A DNA stretch of 64,000 nt from positions 3,272,001 to 3,336,000 of the forward strand of contig NZ_CP030265.1 in NCBI RefSeq assembly GCF_008843145.1, read 5' to 3'. The notes beneath the pieces were generated by a model. The model did not search any database. It had not been told where the DNA came from and worked only from the letters and a program-made list of their open reading frames with translations. A program made the position numbers and the translations under genes. Shown one piece after another: positions 41,509 through 49,500 of the stretch. The stretch comes from Skermanella pratensis (GTDB lineage: Bacteria > Pseudomonadota > Alphaproteobacteria > Azospirillales > Azospirillaceae). Numbering within the stretch: position 1 is the stretch's first letter; every line of letters begins with the position of its first letter.

Positions 41509-42160
41509 GGGGATGTTCTAGCAGCCTGGGGGAGTAGACGCCATGGGGGCGCCGGATGGGGTCACTGCCGGGGATCGCCGCGAGGTCACTATCGGTCACT
41601 GCGGGGGTGGGGTCATTGCCGGGAACCGCCGAAAGGTCACTGTCGGTCACTGCGGGGGCGGGGTCACCGCCGGAAACCGCCGAAGGGTCACTATCGGCCA
41701 CTGCCGGGGCGGGGTCATCGCCGGAAACCGCCGAAAGGTCACTATCGGTCATTGCCGGGGCTAGTGGTCCTGCACAGTGATTTTGATGAGTGCTGCGGAG
41801 CAGGGTGGCGTAGGTCGGCCTTCGCCCGTCAGGGCGAACGCCGACACCCTGCGTCAACGCTCCGGCCACGCTGTCGGCGTCGGCCTTCGGCCGAGGCCGA
41901 CCTACGGCAAACCGATCAAAAACACTGTGCAAGACCACTACGTCACTGCCGGAGCCCCCGGCAAGGTCACTATCGGTCACTGCCGGGGCGGGGTCACTGC
42001 CGGAGTCACCGGAAAGGTCATGCAGGAAATGGCCGCGCTGCCTGACGCCGTGGGGCGAGTACCCCGCCCGCCGCGCGGCCTCCGCCGCCGACGCACCGGC
42101 GGCGATCTCCTCGCAGAAAAGTTCCTGCCGGACGGCGAGCCGGGGAACGGGGGCGGTCAT
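41495..42160 (-). CDS. Repeat-rich protein with terminase-small-subunit-like HTH, interrupted in frame by a MITE
   Basis: 221 residues. The first about 45 (VRQELFCEEIAAGASAAEAA, then RRAGYSPHGVRQRGHFL) look like the helix-turn-helix of phage terminase small subunits. The rest is a 17-residue repeat (core form D-S-D-L-S-A-V-S-G-D-D-P-A-P-A-V) encoded by 51-bp DNA repeats. Between repeats a stretch of about 59 residues (including RPRPKADADSVAGALTQGV) is encoded by an inserted mobile element; no stop is introduced. Its 3' end overlaps recO. Whether the protein is made is unknown; the low complexity and overlap suggest a recent, possibly non-functional frame. Confidence 0.45.
   Translation of the reverse strand: MTAPVPRLAVRQELFCEEIAAGASAAEAARRAGYSPHGVRQRGHFLHDLSGDSGSDPAPAVTDSDLAGGSGSDVVVLHSVFDRFAVGRPRPKADADSVAGALTQGVGVRPDGRRPTYATLLRSTHQNHCAGPLAPAMTDSDLSAVSGDDPAPAVADSDPSAVSGGDPAPAVTDSDLSAVPGNDPTPAVTDSDLAAIPGSDPIRRPHGVYSPRLLEHPHGMD
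41584..42025. repeat. 51-bp tandem repeat array, split by MITE copy A
   Basis: The element GGTCACTATCGGTCACTG recurs at 41584, 41635, 41686, 41737, then at 41965 and 42016 (last copy partial), always 51 bp apart except across the insertion. Subtracting 177 bp (MITE plus one TA) places 41965 exactly 51 bp after 41737. The unit length is a multiple of three, which keeps the minus-strand frame. Confidence 0.9.
41762..41940. mobile_element. MITE copy A, about 177 bp, TA target duplication
   Basis: The ends are imperfect inverted repeats: TAGTGGTCCTGCACAGTG at the left and the complement of TAGTGGTCTTGCACAGTG at the right, bounded by TA on both sides. The interior has a second palindrome pair, GTAGGTCGGCC and GGCCGACCTAC. 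A second copy lies at 53400. TA duplication and short terminal repeats fit a non-autonomous IS630/mariner-type element; the matching transposase is not in the window. Confidence 0.85.
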
Positions 42161-42302
42161 GGCGGCTTGCCTTTCGCTGGCGGTTAGCGGTACGGGATAT
42201 TGATCCTATTTTATTGCCTAATGTCAAGGTCTACAGGGGTGATGTAGGAATATCAATCTGATATGGGGTCGAAGATGACTCTGATCCCTCGGCGGTGACG
42301 GC

Positions 42303-42311
42303 GATGGGGGT
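42303..42311. repeat. Left 9-bp target duplication of the ISAs1-family IS
   Basis: GATGGGGGT directly precedes the left terminal repeat and is repeated exactly at 43566-43574 after the right terminal repeat. Confidence 0.9.
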
Positions 42312-43565
42312 CAGGGCAATCGCTTGAAGGGCTGTCATTGTAGGATTCCCTGGATTGTCGGGATCTGATTCAAAGGAATCTCCTTGAGGAGGAGGTTTCG
42401 ATGGCGGTTACGGCGGCGGGGACCGGGTTGCTGGCGCACTTCAGTGCGCTGGAGGACCCGCGGCAGAGTGGCAAGGTTTTGTACCCTCTGCCGGAGATCC
42501 TTCTGGTCGTGCTATGCGGAACGCTGAGCGGGTGCGACGACTTTGTCGAGATGGCGCTCTGGGGACGCGAGCACCTGAGCTTTCTGCGCAGCTTTGAGCC
42601 GTTTGCGCGCGGCATCGCCAGCCACGACACCCTCAACGACGTCGTCCGGGCGCTTGATCCGGCCCTGTTCGAGGATTGTTTCGTCAGCTGGATCAACAGC
42701 TTGCGCGGTGCGGCGGGAGCCGAGGAGATCGCCGTGCCGGAGACGATCGCGATCGATGGCAAGACCATGCGGCGCAGCGGCAGCCGGCGGGGTGCCGGAC
42801 CGCTGCATCTGGTCTCGGCCTGGGCGTGTGGCCAGCGTCTGGTGCTGGCCCAGGAAGCGGTGACCGGCAAGTCCAACGAGATCACCGCGATCCCGCGCCT
42901 GCTCGACCAACTGGTGCTCAAGGGCGCCCTGGTGACGATCGACGCCATGGGCTGCCAGCGCGCCATCGCCGAGCAGATCGTTGAAGCCGAGGCCGATTAC
43001 GTGCTGGCGATCAAAGGCAACCAGAAATCCCTGTATGGCTCGATCCAGCGCGCCATCGCCGAGGGGCGGGCCGAGGACGGCTTCGGCCTCGACATGGTGC
43101 GGACCGAAGACGCCGATCACGGGCGGAACGAGGTGCGCCGGCACTTCATCCTGCACGACGTCAGCACACTCAACCGGCGCCACGCCTGGCCGGGATTGGG
43201 CGCGGTCGGCATGGTCGAGGCCGAGGTCGAGCGCGACGGCAAGACCACCGTCACCCGGCGCTGCTTCCTGTGCTCCCGACCGATGAGCGCTGCTGAGTTC
43301 GCCGCCGTAGTCCGCTCCCATTGGCAAATCGAGAATTCGCTGCATTGGGTGCTCGATGTCGTCTTCCGCGACGACCATGCCCGCGTCCGCAAAGGCTATG
43401 GCGCTAGGAACATGGGCCTGATCAAGCGTATTGCCGTCAACCTGCTGAAATCCGCCACAGATAAAAACAGCCTCAAGGTCCGTCGAAAAAAAGCTTCCTG
43501 GTCAACCGGTTACCTCCACTCCCTCATAATTGGAACTGCCTGAGCGCCTTCAAGCGATTCCCCTG
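42312..43565 (+). mobile_element. Complete ISAs1-family insertion sequence (1254 bp)
   Basis: The left end CAGGGCAATCGCTTGAAGG and the complement of the right end (CAGGGGAATCGCTTGAAGG) form terminal inverted repeats with one mismatch. A 9-bp direct repeat GATGGGGGT flanks the element on both sides, showing transposition rather than fossil sequence. It carries one intact transposase. The element splits an otherwise uninterrupted stretch between the 51-bp-repeat gene and Rpn-related remnants; no coding sequence is visibly broken at the site. Confidence 0.95.
42401..43543 (+). CDS. ISAs1-family transposase (DDE)
   Basis: 380 residues with the DDE triad visible as Asp119 in TIAIDGKTMRRS, Asp181 in VTIDAMGCQ and Glu311 in HWQIENSLHWVLDV. 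The N-terminal HFSALEDPRQSGKVLYPLPE and the terminal YGARNMGLIKRIAVNLLKS are typical of the family. A GAGGAGG ribosome site precedes the start. The reading frame is intact and bounded by terminal inverted repeats, so the element may be active. Confidence 0.95.
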   Translation: MAVTAAGTGLLAHFSALEDPRQSGKVLYPLPEILLVVLCGTLSGCDDFVEMALWGREHLSFLRSFEPFARGIASHDTLNDVVRALDPALFEDCFVSWINSLRGAAGAEEIAVPETIAIDGKTMRRSGSRRGAGPLHLVSAWACGQRLVLAQEAVTGKSNEITAIPRLLDQLVLKGALVTIDAMGCQRAIAEQIVEAEADYVLAIKGNQKSLYGSIQRAIAEGRAEDGFGLDMVRTEDADHGRNEVRRHFILHDVSTLNRRHAWPGLGAVGMVEAEVERDGKTTVTRRCFLCSRPMSAAEFAAVVRSHWQIENSLHWVLDVVFRDDHARVRKGYGARNMGLIKRIAVNLLKSATDKNSLKVRRKKASWSTGYLHSLIIGTA

Positions 43566-43574
43566 GATGGGGGT
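43566..43574. repeat. Right 9-bp target duplication of the ISAs1-family IS
   Basis: GATGGGGGT, identical to 42303-42311, immediately follows the right terminal inverted repeat. Confidence 0.9.
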
Positions 43575-43657
43575 TTCGACCGGGGCATTTGAGTCCACGC
43601 GTTGGGCCACGGCCCAACGCCCGGAACCGAATGTCAGGGCCGGAACAGGAACGGTTC

Positions 43658-43734
43658 GCCGACCATCCCGGGCACGCCACACTACGGCCGGCGTTCGGCG
43701 AGGTGGTGGCGCACGCGGTCGCGGGCCTTGACGG
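43658..43734 (+). pseudogene. Rpn/YhgA-like nuclease C-terminal remnant
   Basis: A 77-bp stretch matches 48430-48506 closely and encodes the same HPGHATLRPAFGEVVAHAVA motif found just after the nuclease domain of Rpn-family recombination-promoting nucleases. No start or remaining domain is present, so it is a fragment. It lies directly right of the IS element and in the same orientation as the longer Rpn remnant near 48.4 kb. Confidence 0.7.
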
Positions 43735-43760
43735 ACGCCTTCGCCGATACCGCGCTGACA

Positions 43761-44210
43761 GTGACCCGTGCCCTCGGTCTGGAGCAATCAGACGCGGCCA
43801 TATCGGCGCTGGAGCTTGCCCGCGCGCTGGACGACACCGACCGTTTCGTCCGCTCCCTGAACGAGCGCCGCCGGACGGATCAGGTGTCCAAGGGAAAGTT
43901 CGCCGGCGAGCTGCTGTACTTCGTGCGCCAGTGCCGGCCGATCCGGTTGCTTGCCGAGCGGGACGCCATCGACAAGGGGGTCGATGCCACGCGGTTCCAG
44001 GATCTCCTCTGCGTCCGTTTGGTCTGCGAATACATCCCTCGATACCGGCCGCCCCGGGGAATACTGCTGGAACCGATCTTCCTGAGTCACCGGAACGATG
44101 TCAGCGTCGGCGCCATCGGATTGCTGTTCGAATCATTCCTGATCCTCACGCACCTGACCCCATGTCATGGGCGAGACCGTCGTCTGAACTTCGAAAGCAT
44201 CGTCGATATC
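43761..44210 (+). CDS. Fragment of an unknown gene, truncated at its 3' end (end approximate)
   Basis: From about 43761 the plus strand has normal coding composition (strong G/C at third positions) and reads TRALGLEQSDAAISALELAR, LDDTDRFVRSLNERRRTDQV and FVRQCRPIRLLAERDAIDKG. The frame has no stop until deep inside the antisense of the TPR gene (stop of that gene at 44165), so the natural 3' end is missing. I infer a recombination junction near 44165-44210, where this gene and the TPR gene were joined tail to tail. No domain was recognised. The GTG at 43761 is a guess for the start. Confidence 0.4.
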
Positions 44211-46678
44211 AGGCGCATTATCGGGCGGAGTCCCGCGGTGGCGGCCAGATCGTTGATGGTGCGCAGAGTGGCGGGATGCTCGGCGCCCAGCACCCGGCGG
44301 CGGAGCGCCAGCACCTGCTCCAGCAGCGCCCGGGCGCCGCCGTGGTCGCCCTGTGCCCCAAGCGTTCCGGCCAGATTGTTCATGCTGGTCAGGGTGTGGG
44401 GATGCTCGCCGCCCAGCACCCGGCGGCGGAGCGCCAGCACCTGCTCCTGGAGCGCCCGGGCGCCGCCGTGGTCGCCCTGTGCCCGGAGCGTTTCGGCCAG
44501 ATTGTTCATGCTGGTCAGGGTGTCGGGATGCTCGTCGCCCAGCACTTGGCGGATGAGCTCCAGCACCTGCTCCTGGAGCGCCCGGGCGCCGCCGTGGTCG
44601 CCCTGTGCGTTGAGCGTATGGGCCAGATTGTTCATGCTGGTCAGGGTGGCGGGATGCTCGTTGCCCAGCACCTGGCGGCTGAGCGCCAGCACCTGCTCCA
44701 GGAGCGCCCGGGCGCCGCCGTGGTCTCCCTGTGCCCCGAGCGTTGCGGCCAGATTGTTCATGCTGGTCAGGGTGTCGGGATGCTCGTCGCCCAGCACCCG
44801 GCGGCGGAGCGCCAGCACCTGCTCCTGGAGCGCCCGGGCGCCGCCGTGGTCGCCCTGTGCCCCAAGCGTTGCGGCCAGATTGTTCATGCTGGTCAGGGTG
44901 CCGGGATGCTCGCCGCCCAGCAGGCGTTTACTTGCTTCGAAGGTTCGGCGGTGGTCCGCCTCCGCGTCGGCGTAGGCTCCCCGCTCATCATTGAGCCGTC
45001 CAAGCCATACCAGGAGCGTGGCTGTCGGGGCGTCCGGCAGGTCCCCGGTCAGGGCGCGGGCGTGGGGGACCAGGGGCAGCAGGGGGGCATGGTTGCGGAT
45101 GTCTTCGGCTTCCTCCATCGCCTCGGTCAGCGCCGCCACGGCGGCGTCGCGCATCGCGGGCGGCGGGGTACCCCTATGGAAGCGCAGGGTGCGGCTGACC
45201 AGTACGTGGACCGATACGGCGTCGCCGGCATCCTCCCCGCCGCCCGGGATGTGTTCGGCCAGGGCTTCCCGCGCGGCCGCCTTGACGGCGCGGGCGGCTT
45301 CGGCCAGGCCGTCGTCGCCGCCGGGCAGCCGGGCGAGGACATCGGCCGCCAGGGACAGGGGGATCGGTGCCGGGGCCAGCAGGGCGGCGAGGTGCAGGAA
45401 GCGCAGGCCCGCCGGGTCCAGCCGGTCGATGCTGTCCAGCAGGGTGGCCGCGATCTGCCGGGCATGGCCGGTCGGCAGGTCGCCGGCCAGTTCGGCGGCC
45501 AGTTCCGTCGCATCGTCAGCGGGATCGCGCAGCCGGTCGCGGAAGCCGGCGTAGCCCAGCATCTCGACGGCGGCACCCGCCACGTCGACCGCCAGGGCGT
45601 GGTTGCCCAACAGGGCCAGGATCTCCCGCGCCGCCGCCTGCTCGCCATCGCCACGCGCCGGCCGGCGGCCGGTCAGAAGCTCATGGGCCTCGTCGTCCGA
45701 CAGCAGCCCCAGCCGGAGGACGAAGCCCGAACCGCCCAGCCCGGTGCCGCGGGTGGTAACCAGTGTCGCGCCGTTGGCGGTCGGCGCGCTCCAGGCGTTC
45801 AGCTCGGCCGTGCCGGCGTCGGGCGGCAGGTCGTCCACGACCCACAGGTAGGTTTCCCGCCCGGCCAGCCTGCCCTTCAGCAGGCCCGCGACCGCGTCCG
45901 GCCCAAAGCCGGCGGTCGCGATGCCGAGGCTTTCGGCGATGACCTGCCGCTGCGCGCCCAGGTCCTGCCCCTTGGCGGCACTCAGCCACATGATGCCGCC
46001 GGGATAGGCCGCGCCGAAGCGCCGGGCGTATTCCTCCGCCAGCAGGGTCTTGCCGATGCCGCCCATGCCCTGCACCTGGACGAGCCCGACGCTGTCGCCG
46101 GTGATCAGCGCGATCCGGTTCTTCGACAGGCGCCCGTCGATCCGCCACATGTCGGGGAAGCGGCCGACGAACCGGCTGGACCCGGCGCGCGGGTTGCCGC
46201 CGTGCCAGAGCGGGCCGCCGAACGCCTGGACCTCGCCGAAGCTGCCGGCCAATCCCTCCAGCAGGGCGGCGGCCCGGTCGGCCAGCTCCTCGGCCGGGGC
46301 GCCGCGCGCATCGACATATTTCTTCGCCAGGATATCGGCCGGCTGGAGATGCCCGGCGCCCGCCTCCGGGTTCAGCGCCAGGATGCGGCGCTCGACCGTC
46401 CTGCCGTCGGGGAACTCGTGCAGGGCGGCGACGAGGGCGGAGGTCAGCTCCCACTGGCAGGCGCGGCGGGTCGGGTATATGGCCGAGTACCAGGCCACCA
46501 GCATCCGCGCGCGGCCGAGCCCTTCCACGATCCGCCGCCGGATGGACTGCCCGTCCGTGATCTCCGTCTCGTCATGGAAGACGCGGAGCTTCCGGGACTT
46601 CAGCGCCGTGATGACCGGCAGCGCCGCGTCGCGGTCGGCGTGGGCATAGCTGAAAAAGACATCATAGTCCGCGTCCAT
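44165..46678 (-). CDS. TIR-NB-ARC-TPR STAND ATPase, candidate defence protein
   Basis: 837 residues. The TIR domain (about 4-130) opens DYDVFFSYAHADRDAALP and has ARMLVAWYSAIYPTRRACQW with Glu77 in CQWEL, the position of the catalytic Glu in NADase TIRs. NB-ARC (about 165-430) has Walker A VQVQGMGGIGKTLLAEEY, a Walker B-like LWVVDDLPPD and VTTRG. The C-terminal third is kinesin-light-chain-type TPRs, each 42 residues, starting LLGGEHPGTLTSMNNLAATL. In such STAND proteins the TPRs sense a trigger, the NTPase oligomerises, and TIR degrades NAD to stop phage growth. The 3' end looks abrupt (ends FRRRSRP) and may be truncated. Confidence 0.88.
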   Translation of the reverse strand: MDADYDVFFSYAHADRDAALPVITALKSRKLRVFHDETEITDGQSIRRRIVEGLGRARMLVAWYSAIYPTRRACQWELTSALVAALHEFPDGRTVERRILALNPEAGAGHLQPADILAKKYVDARGAPAEELADRAAALLEGLAGSFGEVQAFGGPLWHGGNPRAGSSRFVGRFPDMWRIDGRLSKNRIALITGDSVGLVQVQGMGGIGKTLLAEEYARRFGAAYPGGIMWLSAAKGQDLGAQRQVIAESLGIATAGFGPDAVAGLLKGRLAGRETYLWVVDDLPPDAGTAELNAWSAPTANGATLVTTRGTGLGGSGFVLRLGLLSDDEAHELLTGRRPARGDGEQAAAREILALLGNHALAVDVAGAAVEMLGYAGFRDRLRDPADDATELAAELAGDLPTGHARQIAATLLDSIDRLDPAGLRFLHLAALLAPAPIPLSLAADVLARLPGGDDGLAEAARAVKAAAREALAEHIPGGGEDAGDAVSVHVLVSRTLRFHRGTPPPAMRDAAVAALTEAMEEAEDIRNHAPLLPLVPHARALTGDLPDAPTATLLVWLGRLNDERGAYADAEADHRRTFEASKRLLGGEHPGTLTSMNNLAATLGAQGDHGGARALQEQVLALRRRVLGDEHPDTLTSMNNLAATLGAQGDHGGARALLEQVLALSRQVLGNEHPATLTSMNNLAHTLNAQGDHGGARALQEQVLELIRQVLGDEHPDTLTSMNNLAETLRAQGDHGGARALQEQVLALRRRVLGGEHPHTLTSMNNLAGTLGAQGDHGGARALLEQVLALRRRVLGAEHPATLRTINDLAATAGLRPIMRLISTMLSKFRRRSRP
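44273..44960. repeat. Six 126-bp units encoding the TPR array
   Basis: GGGATGCTC-type unit starts fall at 44273, 44399, 44525, 44651, 44777 and 44903, exactly 126 bp apart (42 codons). Copies differ at only a few positions, mainly at codons for the variable residues (Leu/Arg/Ser before QVLG or RVLG, and the middle of LEQ/LQEQ). Near-identity at DNA level indicates recent expansion or gene conversion. The last unit (nearest 44960) is more divergent. Confidence 0.92.
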
Positions 46679-47034
46679 CGCACGCCCCCGCCCGTGACTG
46701 GCCGGCCGCGACGGCGCCAAGCCTCTGGTATCAACCGACACGGGTAAAATAGCAGCGGGCATGATCCGACGGGAGTCCTTTCCGGAAGTTTCGCCACTTC
46801 CAAAGGGAGCTGCCACCGTGCCCGCCGGCCCGGAGCGCACGCGACAGTCCCGCGGCGAACCCATCCCTCGGTTGACCCGCCCGTCCAGGCGCCCACTTTG
46901 CAGAGTATTTGACAATGCACAGGCATTCGGCGCACAGTTCGCGCGCCGTCGCACCCCGCGAGGCGGCCGAGCAAGGAGTTACCAGCTCCCCACCCGGCCT
47001 GACCACCGATCAACCCGCTTAAGGAAGATTATCG
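46679..47034. other. 356-base divergent gap, no gene seen
   Basis: This stretch lies between the TIR-NB-ARC-TPR gene and a leftward-to-rightward divergent gene set. It is less GC-rich around 46740-46770 and 46905-46935, where promoters are likely. I recognise no gene, repeat or structured RNA. Confidence 0.4.
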
Positions 47035-47323
47035 ATGGCTACCGATCCGAATAGCACAACCGGCGCCTTGTTGCGCCAATCTTTGTTCTCCGCCGCCGCA
47101 GGGGTCCCGATCCCTGCGGCGGCGGGAACACCCGTTCCCGATCCGCGCCGTCACCGTCAGCACCGAGACCGTCCGCGCGGCACCCTCCGCGGTTCCTGAC
47201 CGCGACCAGGCTCCGGCAAGTCCCATCAGGTCCCGAGGCCGGGAGTCCCGGCCCGCTTTCGGCGAGCGCCCGGCGCTTTCCGGAAGGCGCTCTCCCGTTG
47301 CCGACGCTTCCGAACGCGCGTGA
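47035..47323 (+). pseudogene. Small unknown gene with a probable frameshift
   Basis: AAGGAAG precedes an ATG at 47035 that reads MATDPNSTTGALLRQSLFSA and on through GVPIPAAAGTPVPDP, then stops at 47199 in a low-quality Arg-rich tail. In a second frame, coding-like sequence continues as VTVSTETVRAAPSAVPDRDQ to a stop at 47321-47323. One base too many near 47140-47155 would explain it (total length is 3n+1). No family is recognised. Alternatively the first 54 residues alone are the product. Confidence 0.45.
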
Positions 47324-47336
47324 AGGTCCCATCCCC

Positions 47337-47624
47337 ATGCAGAACGATACCGCCGATGCCTCGGGCGCCGGCGACTCCACCGATGTCGCCGACCCCGCCA
47401 CCACCACCACCACTACCACCGCCGCCCCGTCGGCCGTGATGACCCTCGCCCTCGACGTCGTCGGCCTGCTGCGCGACACCGGGCTGGCCGTCGTCGAGCC
47501 CGAGCCGACCCCCGCCATGGTCGCCGCCGGCGTGGCCGCCTCCGGCCTCGGCGCCGACCGGGTCCGCGCCGTCTTCAAGGCCATGCTGGCGGCGGGCGGA
47601 ACGGTCGCCGGCCGGGTCCAGTAG
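47337..47624 (+). CDS. Small unknown protein
   Basis: 95 residues from the ATG at 47337, with AAGG ten bases upstream. The first 35 residues are Asp/Ala/Thr-rich with a run of Thr (DPATTTTTTTAAPSAV); the rest is a compact helical segment, LALDVVGLLRDTGLAVVEPE, then TPAMVAAGVAASGLGADRVR and VFKAMLAAGGTVAGR. There is no recognised domain, signal peptide or membrane segment. It is the one intact member of three adjacent small genes divergent from the TIR-NB-ARC-TPR gene. Confidence 0.5.
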   Translation: MQNDTADASGAGDSTDVADPATTTTTTTAAPSAVMTLALDVVGLLRDTGLAVVEPEPTPAMVAAGVAASGLGADRVRAVFKAMLAAGGTVAGRVQ

Positions 47625-47639
47625 CCCGGACCGGCCCCG

Positions 47640-48138
47640 GTGGTCCCCTACCGCTACCCGGCGTGCCGCTGGCGCACGCTGAACCCCCAGCTCGACCCGC
47701 TGCTGACGGTCTGGTGGAGCGTCCAGCGCCCCTGCGAGGGCCGGCAGCCGCGCTGGTCCGAGATCGAGCGCCGCCTGTGGATGCCGTTCCGCCGCCGCCT
47801 GATCCTGGTCCGCGACGGTCCGCGCGCCGACCCGCCGTTCTGCCTCGCCCTGTTCCCGCTGGCCGCCGAACTGCTCGGCCTGCCCGCCGGCTTCCAGGGC
47901 ACCGCCTGGGCCAGCCGCGCCCAGGCGGACCGGATCGGCTGCCTCACCCTCAACGCGGCGGCGGCCCAGGCCGCGGCCTCCGGCCCGATCCCGCCCGGCC
48001 CCCGCCGCCGAGCGGGACGGCATGCTCAAGGCCGTCGCCGTGCCCCTCGAGCCGGAGCCGGACGGCACCATCGCCCACGACCGCCCGGTGCTGATCGCGG
48101 TCGCGTGGCCGGACCCGAGGCGGCCAGACCCCTTCTGA
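47640..48138 (+). pseudogene. Unknown gene with a single-base frameshift
   Basis: Starts GTG at 47640 and reads VPYRYPACRWRTLNPQLDPL, then TVWWSVQRPCEGRQPRWSEI and RRRLILVRDGPRADPPFCLA. After about residue 120 (ASGPIPPGP) the frame must change to reach AAERDGMLKAVAVPLEPEPD and its stop at 48136-48138. Removing one C from the CCCCC run near 48001-48005 restores a continuous protein of about 165 residues. The family is unknown. The Trp/Arg-rich N-terminus is unusual for this genome but codon use is normal. Confidence 0.5.
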
Positions 48139-48244
48139 TGAATCGCGCCGGATCAGAAGGTCGCGGGAGAAGGTCGGGGCTTGCCGATGGTTGCGGGAGT
48201 ATGCTGTTGTTCGCGCGACCATCACCCGACCGGCGCCCGCGACG

Positions 48245-48852
48245 ATGCAAGCCTCCGACTCCCTGTACCACCGCCTGTTCTCCGACCCGGTGATGATCGA
48301 ACAGCTCGTGCGCGGCTTCCTGCCCGCCGGGATCGCCGCCCTGCTGGACTTCACCCGGCTCGAACGGGTCAACGCCAAGTTCCACGCCGCCCGCGGCGAC
48401 CGGCGCGAGGGCGACGTGATCTGGCGCGTGCCGAGCATCCGGGCCACGCGACGCTGCGGCTGGCGTTCGGCGAGGTGGTGGCGCACGCAGTCGCGGGTCT
48501 GGTCGGCGGCCGGGAGGCCGCGACGGTGCCGATGGATATCGAGGAGGTTCAGGGCATGCTGGCGGAACGCATCAAGAAGTGGGAACGGGAACTCCTCGCC
48601 AAAGGCGAGGCCAGGGGCGAGGCAAAGGGCATTGCCAAGGGCATTGCCCAGGGCGAGGCCAAAGGCGTCGCGCTTGGCCGGGCCGCCATGCTCAAGCGCC
48701 AATTCACCCGACGCTTCGGTGTCCTGCCGGCGGATGTGGAACGGTTGATCGATACCGCGACGCCGGATCAACACGACACCTACATGGACCGCCTGATGGA
48801 CGCCCAAGCACCGAGCGACGTTTTCCCCGGCCTCCTCCGCCCCGGCGAGTGA
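48245..48852 (+). pseudogene. Rpn/YhgA-family nuclease (transposase-like), internally deleted and frameshifted
   Basis: The N-terminus (MQASDSLYHRLFSDPVMIEQ, then GDVIWRVP) is that of Rpn-family PD-(D/E)XK recombination-promoting nucleases. It is joined directly to the post-nuclease segment EHPGHATLRLAFGEVVAHAV, which lies in another frame; the C-terminus then runs AERIKKWERELLAKGEARGE with Gly/Glu/Lys/Ala repeats to the stop at 48852. Intact relatives have about 150 residues more in the middle, including the catalytic core. So the gene is dead. The 77-bp piece 48430-48506 is repeated near 43.7 kb. Confidence 0.75.
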
Positions 48853-49500
48853 CCCGGTTCTCCGGCCGGAACGGACGATTCCCCGCTTCATCTTCTGCGG
48901 TGCGTGGGGCCGTGGCCCGACGCATCGCGGAACGTGTCGCGGGCCGGGTTCGCATACCAGGACGGCGCATCCCGCGAAGTCCTCGTCGGAACGCCTCGGC
49001 GATCACGGTTTTTCCGTAGATGGAATAACCAAATGCTGGGCTTCTGTGACATCGTCACGGAACAAAACTCGCCAGCCGCCGTTAACCACGATGTTAACCG
49101 GATAATAACCACGGTCGTTCAGGGTGGAGGTCATCAGCCAAGCTCGCGAAACCTCCAAGATGGTGCTGTCATGTGGAACAGCTTTTCCAAGGATTGGGCG
49201 CGTTGGTCGCCCGCAGAACGCTTCGTAGCCCGCATGGTTTTCCTTGCCGTGACGGTCGGCGCCGCAAGCCAGGCGGTCATCCACGTCATCTGACTTATAT
49301 GGTGTAAGGACCGTGTCCTTTCATCTTGTCCTTTGACCTTCGCCGCCATTTCATACGTTGTTCGAAGCCCGGCGCATGCGTTTGCGCCATTTTACCCTCC
49401 GCCTGGATCGTTGTAGTCATCTGCCCGGGCGCCAAGTGCGCCTCGGAAGGACCAGGACGAAGAAGGCACCGTGGCCAAACGGTGCTGCGCGGAGGAAACA
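48853..49500. other. 648-base gap with two weak small open frames
   Basis: 49171-49293 (+) could encode a 40-residue peptide with a hydrophobic segment (FVARMVFLAVTVGAASQAVI). 49003-49134 (-) could encode a 43-residue peptide (MTSTLNDRGYYPVNIVVNGG, then WRVLFRDDVTEAQ) with AT-rich codons unlike the surrounding genes. Neither has a convincing ribosome site, so neither is called as a gene. The stretch is lower in GC than its surroundings. Confidence 0.35.

What the first reader, a model, noticed from the sequence alone, without database searches (positions are those of the whole stretch)
44165..46678. TIR-NB-ARC-TPR protein with freshly amplified 126-bp TPR units: candidate anti-phage sensor
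One gene combines a TIR domain with a Glu at the NADase position (Glu77), an NB-ARC STAND ATPase and a sensor of six nearly identical 42-residue TPRs at exact 126-bp spacing. Near-identity at DNA level means the sensor is being expanded or converted now, as expected of an immune receptor under arms-race selection. It sits in the window's only accessory region, beside an IS element, a MITE and Rpn remnants. TIR-STAND proteins are an established class of bacterial immune NTPases; the trigger of this one is unknown and no identical system is known to me.
Basis: partly seen in the sequence, partly recalled or inferred. Interest (0 to 1): 0.85.

Follow-up and report, generated by a model that had tools for sequence, protein, structure and literature searches.

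The report
Fast-diversifying bacterial NLR-like immune receptor
A soil bacterium carries a likely immune-receptor gene whose repeated sensor part is copied, reshuffled and varied at just the residues expected to touch its target, an evolutionary pattern known from fungal immune receptors.

Summary
The gene is real: window 44165-46678 (minus) encodes 837 aa with TIR_2 (Glu77 in CQWEL), NB-ARC (Walker A/B) and kinesin-light-chain-type 42-residue TPRs. There are five complete near-identical 126-bp units, plus a degenerate first unit and a partial last one, not six. The genus is Skermanella. The gene lies in a 7.45-kb insert; the empty site is intact in two congeners. It belongs to a multicopy family: two copies here, five loci in S. 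mucosa, two of them on plasmid pSM-2. At syntenic loci unit number differs between species (5 vs 4; 3 vs 4 vs a broken copy), and units do not follow the history of the gene that holds them. Within arrays, amino-acid variation concentrates at TPR positions 2, 9 and 12. At literature-defined concave positions pN exceeds pS 2.5-fold in Skermanella, beyond a neutral GC-biased null; the same positions lead in 12 genes outside the family. The NLR-like immune-receptor reading is thus strengthened. TIR-STAND-TPR proteins are already known (one is anti-phage in E. coli), as is this repeat regime in fungal NLRs; I found no report of it for bacterial TIR-NLRs. Phage defence, NADase activity and ligand are untested, and this copy lacks its relatives' C-terminal cap. 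New variant of a known kind.

The parts
44165..46678 (-). TIR - NB-ARC - TPR protein (837 aa), NLR-like receptor
46298..46660 (-). TIR_2 domain, aa 7-127, with Glu77 (codon 46448-46450)
   Evidence: Pfam; Glu77 identical in 15 of 15 aligned sequences
45644..46108 (-). NB-ARC (STAND) match, aa 191-345; Walker A GMGGIGKT, Walker B LWVVDD
   Evidence: Pfam; motifs printed (motif names recalled)
44270..44899 (-). five complete near-identical 126-bp units, each one 42-residue TPR (units 1-5 at 44774-44899, 44648-44773, 44522-44647, 44396-44521, 44270-44395)
44900..45025 (-). degenerate first TPR unit
   Evidence: helices
   Evidence: DNA homology to relatives ends near 44238
41524..48973 (.). 7.45-kb insert between recO and an AMP-binding-enzyme gene; empty site intact in G002 and G003
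42312..43565 (+). ISAs1-family IS element (transposase 42401-43543, 19-bp inverted repeats)

Best explanation
An NLR-like intracellular immune receptor. The concave groove of the 42-residue TPR array binds a trigger, most likely an extended protein segment from a phage or other invader. Binding releases autoinhibition of the NB-ARC switch; the protein exchanges ADP for ATP and oligomerises; the clustered TIR domains cleave NAD+ (by depletion or by a signal) and stop infection by shutting the cell down. Specificity is renewed by gain, loss and reshuffling of near-identical units and by selection on the residues at groove positions 2, 9 and 12 (and 13, 31). Shown here: architecture, conserved Glu, repeat turnover, excess amino-acid change at groove positions, and multicopy, partly broken, partly plasmid-borne distribution. 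Inferred: ligand class, ATP switch, NADase activity, phage defence.
For: Architecture and fold: first PDB fold match is the TPR-sensor STAND 6mfv (TM-score only 0.36/0.45 over the whole chain, so domain by domain); TIR-NLR RPP1 (7dfv) and KLC TPRs with bound cargo peptide (6swu, 6fv0) follow; model mean pLDDT 83.9. TIR Glu in 15 of 15. Diversification: 29 units of 7 Skermanella genes, pN(2,5,9,12,13)/pS(all) = 2.47 (bootstrap 1.77-3.03); 0 of 800 neutral simulations reach it; the other 33 positions have pN/pS 0.29. Twelve genes outside Azospirillaceae: ratio 1.41 (1.01-2.04), top positions 9, 2, 12, 13, 1 of 800 simulations. Variation lies on one face of helix A (81 of 10000 permutations). Turnover: syntenic arrays of 5 vs 4 and 3 vs 4 units; ortholog arrays G002c/G003a 89.7% identical although codons 1-560 are 93.9%; G003a's array is 92.1% identical to the window array although codons 1-560 are 89.2%. 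Mobility: private insert, plasmid copies, broken copies. Two copies overlap a SIR2 gene by 4 bp. TIR-STAND-TPR is anti-phage in E. coli (PMC9122126, passages).
Against: PADLOC hits are weak (best E 4.6e-11, on the TIR part). In 50,697 phage records only three Wolbachia phage records match, by the TPR part alone. Neighbours are mixed and not a dense defence island: of 10 scanned with Pfam at five other copies, two are SIR2_2, one HipA, one cyclase-domain, the rest transporter, metabolic, terminase-like, DUF389 or unmatched; at the pSM-2 copy mostly metabolic genes are annotated. Over the whole unit pN is below pS (ratio 0.81 Skermanella, 0.57 Azospirillum), so selection is site-limited. Units within a gene are only slightly more alike than between genes (pS 0.118 vs 0.146), so homogenisation inside each gene is weak overall; it is clearest in the window. 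In Azospirillum the five-position excess is not convincing (1.27, bootstrap 0.85-1.46; 28 of 800 simulations reach it). The window copy lacks its relatives' C-terminal cap. No comparison within one species was possible: one genome per species is held.
Confidence: 0.66

Rival explanations
1. Neutral repeat turnover: unequal crossing-over and conversion keep the 126-bp units alike, and groove residues vary because they are unconstrained, without an arms race.
For: Homogenisation alone explains near-identity; TPR groove positions are the most variable in TPRs in general (PMC1261162, passages); the Azospirillum excess over pS is weak; over the whole unit pN is below pS.
Against: Relaxed constraint alone should not give pN above pS: 2.47 in Skermanella with 0 of 800 neutral simulations, 1.41 in 12 distant genes with 1 of 800.
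Confidence: 0.12
2. A non-defence signalling or kin-recognition receptor, for example of the FxSxx-COOH peptide type or like fungal allorecognition NLRs.
For: Best NCBIfam hit is FxSxx_TPR (284 bits, cut-off 300), and copy G002c (L123) passes the cut-off (346 bits). The same repeat regime serves non-self recognition in fungi (PMC4986451, passages).
Against: None of 10 neighbour proteins scanned at five other copies matches a radical-SAM or peptide-processing family in Pfam at E 0.01, nor is one annotated at the pSM-2 copy. The best stretch of the FxSxx hit is in the TPR part (566-814). Patchy, multicopy, partly broken distribution suits defence.
Confidence: 0.14
3. The family is functional but the window copy is a decaying remnant: inserted near an IS, C-terminally altered, on the way out.
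For: C-terminal cap absent; a 93% identical copy on pSM-2 is already a fragment; broken copy G003b.
Against: 837-codon frame fully open, catalytic Glu and nucleotide motifs present; five repeats with low pS and pN above pS (0.082 vs 0.062); C-termini of other open copies also differ (G002d, G004a).
Confidence: 0.25

Closest known systems
Anti-phage TIR-NLR (TIR-STAND-TPR) of E. coli P4-like satellites (Rousset 2022, PMC9122126)
   Same: N-terminal TIR, central STAND NTPase, C-terminal TPRs in one protein (passages)
   Different: Direct sequence comparison not made; no P2- or P4-type record among the phage records matched our protein at E 1e-5. High-identity arrays are not mentioned in the passages I read
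Fungal NLRs with highly conserved repeats, e.g. P. [quoted passage not shown]
   Same: NB-ARC plus TPRs modelled on kinesin light chain, high internal identity, unit-number changes, selected sites on the concave face (passages)
   Different: Ours is bacterial, has a TIR effector and shorter arrays, and the evidence is between species, not within a population
Avs and other antiviral STANDs
   Same: STAND switch with C-terminal sensor and N-terminal effector (PMC10907252 passages)
   Different: Those are described there as binding conserved phage proteins; this sensor is variable
DGR-diversified STAND sensors (PMC10907252)
   Same: Diversified sensor on a STAND or TIR protein
   Different: No template copy of the repeat in the genome; the nine RT matches are elsewhere, in 479-515-aa frames. 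Repeat recombination plus selection instead of templated mutagenesis
Plant TNPs (TIR-NBARC-TPR; PMC9806590)
   Same: Domain order; bacterial TIR-NB-TPR proteins are noted there (passages)
   Different: Plant TNPs are described there as highly conserved; similarity between the kingdoms rests on the NB domain, not on TIR or TPR

Membership tests
TIR-NLR / antiviral STAND | N-terminal TIR with NADase Glu | tested here: met
   TIR_2 above cut-off; Glu77 in 15 of 15; that this Glu is the catalytic one is from knowledge of the family; activity not tested
TIR-NLR / antiviral STAND | Central STAND NTPase with Walker A and B | tested here: met
   NB-ARC above cut-off; motifs; STAND fold match 6mfv
TIR-NLR / antiviral STAND | C-terminal repeat sensor | tested here: met
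TIR-NLR / antiviral STAND | Protection against phage | not testable with these tools
   needs a plaque assay
TIR-NLR / antiviral STAND | Homologue carried by a phage or satellite | tested here: not met
   3 of 50,697 phage records match, TPR part only; this is an occasional setting rather than a strict criterion
High-internal-conservation NLR (Dyrka 2014) | More than 85% identity over at least 100 aa of repeats | tested here: inconclusive
   window array mean 86.7% (81.0-90.5) over 5 x 42 aa, about at the threshold; most relatives 71-85%; their method was not used
High-internal-conservation NLR (Dyrka 2014) | Repeat-number polymorphism at one locus | tested here: met
   between species only: 5 vs 4; 3 vs 4 vs a broken array
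High-internal-conservation NLR (Dyrka 2014) | Positive selection at concave positions | tested here: met
   pair counts, for Skermanella, for distant genes; not convincing for five positions in Azospirillum; no codon model was run
Thoeris | ThsA partner beside a TIR protein | tested here: not met
   no ThsA- or SIR2-like hit among the window neighbour ORFs scanned; two congeneric copies have a SIR2_2 neighbour with at most weak ThsA similarity
FxSxx-COOH system TPR protein | NF040586 score of at least 300 bits | tested here: not met
   284 bits in the window copy; 346 and 291 bits in two relatives
FxSxx-COOH system TPR protein | Linked peptide-processing genes | tested here: inconclusive
   absent from 10 neighbour proteins and from the pSM-2 annotation; the genome was not searched for them
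DGR target | Template repeat and DGR reverse transcriptase near the gene | tested here: not met

The most novel reading that the evidence does not exclude
The array is a modular, programmable protein reader. Each near-identical 42-residue TPR grips the backbone of an extended ligand with its nearly invariant Asn (unit residue 7) and reads side chains with positions 2, 9, 12 and 13. Bacteria build new immune specificities by shuffling interchangeable units among paralogous loci and plasmids, a combinatorial receptor repertoire in a prokaryote, with TIR outputs in some genomes coupled to a SIR2 effector.
Probability: 0.22. Interest if true: 0.88.

Novelty: new variant of a known kind. Interest (0 to 1): 0.62.

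Why it matters
If right, bacteria evolve NLR-type receptors in the same way as fungi: a fixed switch and effector with a recombining, positively selected repeat sensor. That makes the ligand question directly testable, because the residues that set specificity are few and known, and natural arrays that differ mainly there exist in one genus. It would also add a non-DGR route to a diversified sensor repertoire in prokaryotes.

Tried and rejected
Targeted mutagenesis by a diversity-generating retroelement: rejected; in the window's genome the repeat occurs only in the two genes plus one 25-bp match, and the nine reverse-transcriptase matches are 479-515-aa frames far from the gene. FxSxx-COOH membership: score below cut-off. 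Thoeris membership: no partner. Promoter scan: nothing (0.3 expected by chance, so uninformative). Conserved operon: none seen at the copies examined except a SIR2 gene at two syntenic loci; the SIR2 homologue in G034 (51%, 46%) is in a genome without a TIR-NLR match. The SIR2 protein has no match in 72,556 plasmid records or in the PDB.

Limits of the counts. pN/pS are Nei-Gojobori-type pair counts, not a codon model; pairs are not independent, hence bootstrap by gene and simulation. The concave list 2,5,9,12,13 was recalled for after I had looked at the units, and was then confirmed in PMC1261162; that paper also names 33 and 34 as variable and 6 as ligand-contacting. I left out 33 and 34 because they do not map onto 42-residue units, and 6, which is the conserved Asn. 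The subset 2,9,12 was chosen after seeing the Skermanella units; only the Azospirillum and distant sets test it independently. Units dropped before counting: degenerate first units, diverged last units (except that of G042, which passed the filter), one 41-residue unit of G002e, the G003b unit with a stop, units not ending in the EHP-type motif (one of G025, one of G036), one starting with Ala (G025), and the copies G003b, G004a, G004b and G037 as a whole. In one search units under 60% identity to their array consensus, and genes left with fewer than three units, were dropped. G042, G025 and G017 are the same contigs as L042, L043 and L044, which were therefore left out of the distant set. The loci (best 80 of 98 kept, 78 distinct) were partly found with the peptide DTLTSMNN, so conservation of those residues there is partly a search effect. 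The first neutral simulation (60 runs per kappa) was repeated with 400 runs per kappa, which stopped with an error on a last extra set (window alone); its three completed sets are used. In one search five of 120 runs reached the Azospirillum five-position value and none the others.
Full report
WHAT IS THERE. Window 44165-46678, minus strand, is one open frame of 837 codons. Pfam finds TIR_2 at 7-127, NB-ARC at 191-345 and TPR_10/TPR_12 over the C-terminal third, all above cut-off. Glu77 lies in CQWEL, and Walker A GMGGIGKT and Walker B LWVVDD are present. Tandem Repeats Finder gives 5.4 copies of 126 bp at 91% matches. Five units are complete and near-identical (44270-44899; mean DNA identity 92.4%; mean protein identity 86.7%). 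An AlphaFold2 model from 18 sequences has mean pLDDT 83.9 and regular TPR helix pairs. Foldseek's first PDB hit is a STAND protein with a TPR sensor (6mfv; TM-scores 0.36 and 0.45, so a domain-level likeness); kinesin-light-chain TPR structures, several with bound peptide, the near-identical Podospora TPR repeats and the plant TIR-NLR RPP1 follow. By sequence the TPRs are closest to kinesin light chain 1 and to the same Podospora repeats.

WHERE IT SITS. The genus is Skermanella: contig 3 of congener G002 has the length and match coordinates of S. mucosa plasmid pSM-2, NZ_CP086108.1. Window 41524-48973 (7,450 bp) is an insert: the flanks abut in G002 and G003 with a 3-bp overlap and lie about 60 bp apart in G004; in G001 the site was not resolved. 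The insert holds an ISAs1 element, 51-bp tandem repeats, a roughly 170-bp element that occurs many times in the congeners and this gene. A 93% identical fragment of the gene lies on pSM-2 beside a 97% identical stretch of the same insert, so the cassette has moved between replicons.

THE FAMILY. In the genus search 5 of 5 genomes have a match: two copies in the window's genome, both open (the second has 778 aa counted from its tblastn start and 3 units), five loci in G002, two of them on the plasmid (one a fragment), two in G003 (one broken), two in G004, and a 74-aa stretch with stops in G001. In the family 30 of 82 genomes match at all; alignments that run from the TIR into the TPRs occur in 10 of 82 (G000, G002, G003, G004, G017, G025, G033, G036, G037, G042), the one in G033 at only 30% identity. 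Among the loci of the GTDB contig scan, 12 of the 24 ORFs listed have both TIR and NB-ARC by models built here; three of the 12 are Azospirillum, nine lie outside the family (Rhodocyclaceae, Oceanospirillaceae, two acidobacterial MAGs, two deltaproteobacterial MAGs, Dadabacteria, Streptomyces, an unnamed bacterium).

REPEATS TURN OVER. Syntenic loci, with about 94-97% DNA identity in the flanks, hold different numbers of units: G002c 5 and G003a 4; G000b 3, G002e 4 (one of 41 residues) and G003b a broken array. For G002c/G003a, codons 1-560 are 93.9% identical but the units average 89.7%, with no clear unit-to-unit pairing. The G003a units are nearer to the window's array (92.1%) than to their own ortholog, although the bodies of those two genes are only 89.2% identical; for G002c the two values are about equal (90.0% to the window, body 89.6%). 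The arrays therefore have a history of their own: exchange between loci or very fast turnover. Synonymous divergence within the window array (0.062) is below that between paralogue NB-ARC regions (0.11-0.26), so amplification or homogenisation is recent there. This is weaker elsewhere: within-gene pS of the units runs from 0.062 to 0.218 in the seven Skermanella genes and averages 0.118 against 0.146 between genes. Most pairs of variable positions are unlinked; only 9 with 12 stands out among 15 pairs (17 of 2000 permutations).

SELECTION ON THE GROOVE. In 29 units of 7 Skermanella genes the variable residues are unit positions 3, 10, 13, 25, 32, 38 and 42, that is TPR positions 2, 9, 12, 24, 31 and two sites near the loop. 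Magliery and Regan (PMC1261162, passages read) name 2, 5, 9, 12, 13, 33 and 34 as the most variable and concave positions. At 2, 5, 9, 12, 13 pN/pS(all) is 2.47 (bootstrap by gene 1.77-3.03); within the remaining 33 positions (those five and 24, 31, 37, 41 left out) pN/pS is 0.29, and over the whole unit 0.81. A neutral simulation with the observed GC3 and kappa 2 or 4 gives means of 1.22 and 1.17; none of 800 runs reaches 2.47. The same ratio is 1.41 (1.01-2.04) in 12 genes outside Azospirillaceae (64 units; 7 of the 12 with a TIR by my model), where 9, 2, 12 and 13 are the four most variable positions and 1 of 800 runs reaches it. In Azospirillum (16 units, 4 genes) it is 1.27 (0.85-1.46), reached by 28 of 800 runs: consistent in direction but not convincing. 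In helix A the variation lies on one face (81 of 10000 permutations). Unit residue 7 (Asn) is invariant in the Skermanella set and nearly so in the distant set (pN 0.01). That such asparagines hold peptide backbones in kinesin-light-chain-type TPRs is recalled, not from a call.

HOW IT MOST LIKELY WORKS. The anatomy is that of an NLR: ligand in the TPR groove, ADP/ATP switch in NB-ARC, oligomerisation, TIR activation, NAD+ cleavage, growth arrest or death of the infected cell. The last steps are inference from published TIR-NLR and STAND systems (PMC9122126 passages; PMC10907252 passages). Two relatives (syntenic copies in G002 and G004) overlap by 4 bp a downstream 815/808-aa gene with SIR2_2, a second NAD-linked domain known from defence systems; this supports a defence setting but is absent from the window's genome.

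WHAT SPEAKS AGAINST. The window copy lacks the cap that ends five relatives (G000b, G002a, G002c, G003a, G002e) and no convincing remnant of it was found within 10 kb (best E 0.70), so this copy may be impaired. PADLOC similarity is weak. The neighbours examined do not form a dense defence island, though a HipA-like gene and a cyclase-domain gene with PycC similarity lie near copy G000b. Nothing here tests phage or NAD+.

KNOWN AND NEW. TIR-STAND-TPR proteins are known, one with proven phage defence (PMC9122126). Bacterial TIR-NB-TPR proteins are noted in PMC9806590 (passages), and TIR-AP-ATPase genes with C-terminal TPRs beside peptide-processing systems in PMC7159879 (passages). The regime of highly alike TPRs with selected concave residues and changing unit number is described for fungal NLRs in PMC4986451 (passages); high internal conservation of WD40 repeats in bacteria is mentioned in PMC12222747 (passages). 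The ten searches listed no paper that, by title, abstract start or the passages I read, reports this regime for bacterial TIR-NLRs; only part of the listed papers were opened, and none in whole. Subscription papers (for example Dyrka 2020 J Mol Biol, seen only as a reference, and Marold 2015, not held) could not be checked. I therefore call it a new variant of a known kind.

Noticed in passing
L124:5245-7692 (-) and L125:11149-13575 (+): SIR2_2 proteins (815 and 808 aa) start inside the last codons of two syntenic TIR-NB-ARC-TPR genes (4-bp ATGA overlap): a TIR-NLR plus sirtuin operon in two Skermanella species. One homologue in Azospirillum G034 (46-51% identity) is in a genome without a TIR-NLR match.
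   Followed up: partly
L124:7689-10760 and L125:8216-11152: These SIR2-linked TIR-NLRs have a longer C-terminus (1018 and 978 aa from the tblastn start) than the single-gene copies; its role is unknown.
   Followed up: no
window 41558-41761: Four copies of a 51-bp tandem repeat (88% matches) at the left edge of the insert.
   Followed up: no
   Followed up: partly
window 43602-44168 (+): Open frame beside the altered 3' end of the receptor gene with no Pfam match; this stretch may be what replaced the missing C-terminal cap.
   Followed up: no
L120:11829-14974: A HipA-like gene and a cyclase-domain gene (PADLOC PycC similarity, E 3e-16) lie near the second copy of the receptor in the window's own genome.
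   Followed up: no
G000:C1, nine places: Nine reverse-transcriptase matches in 479-515-aa frames, seven of them with the same score: probably mobile group II introns in this genome.
   Followed up: no
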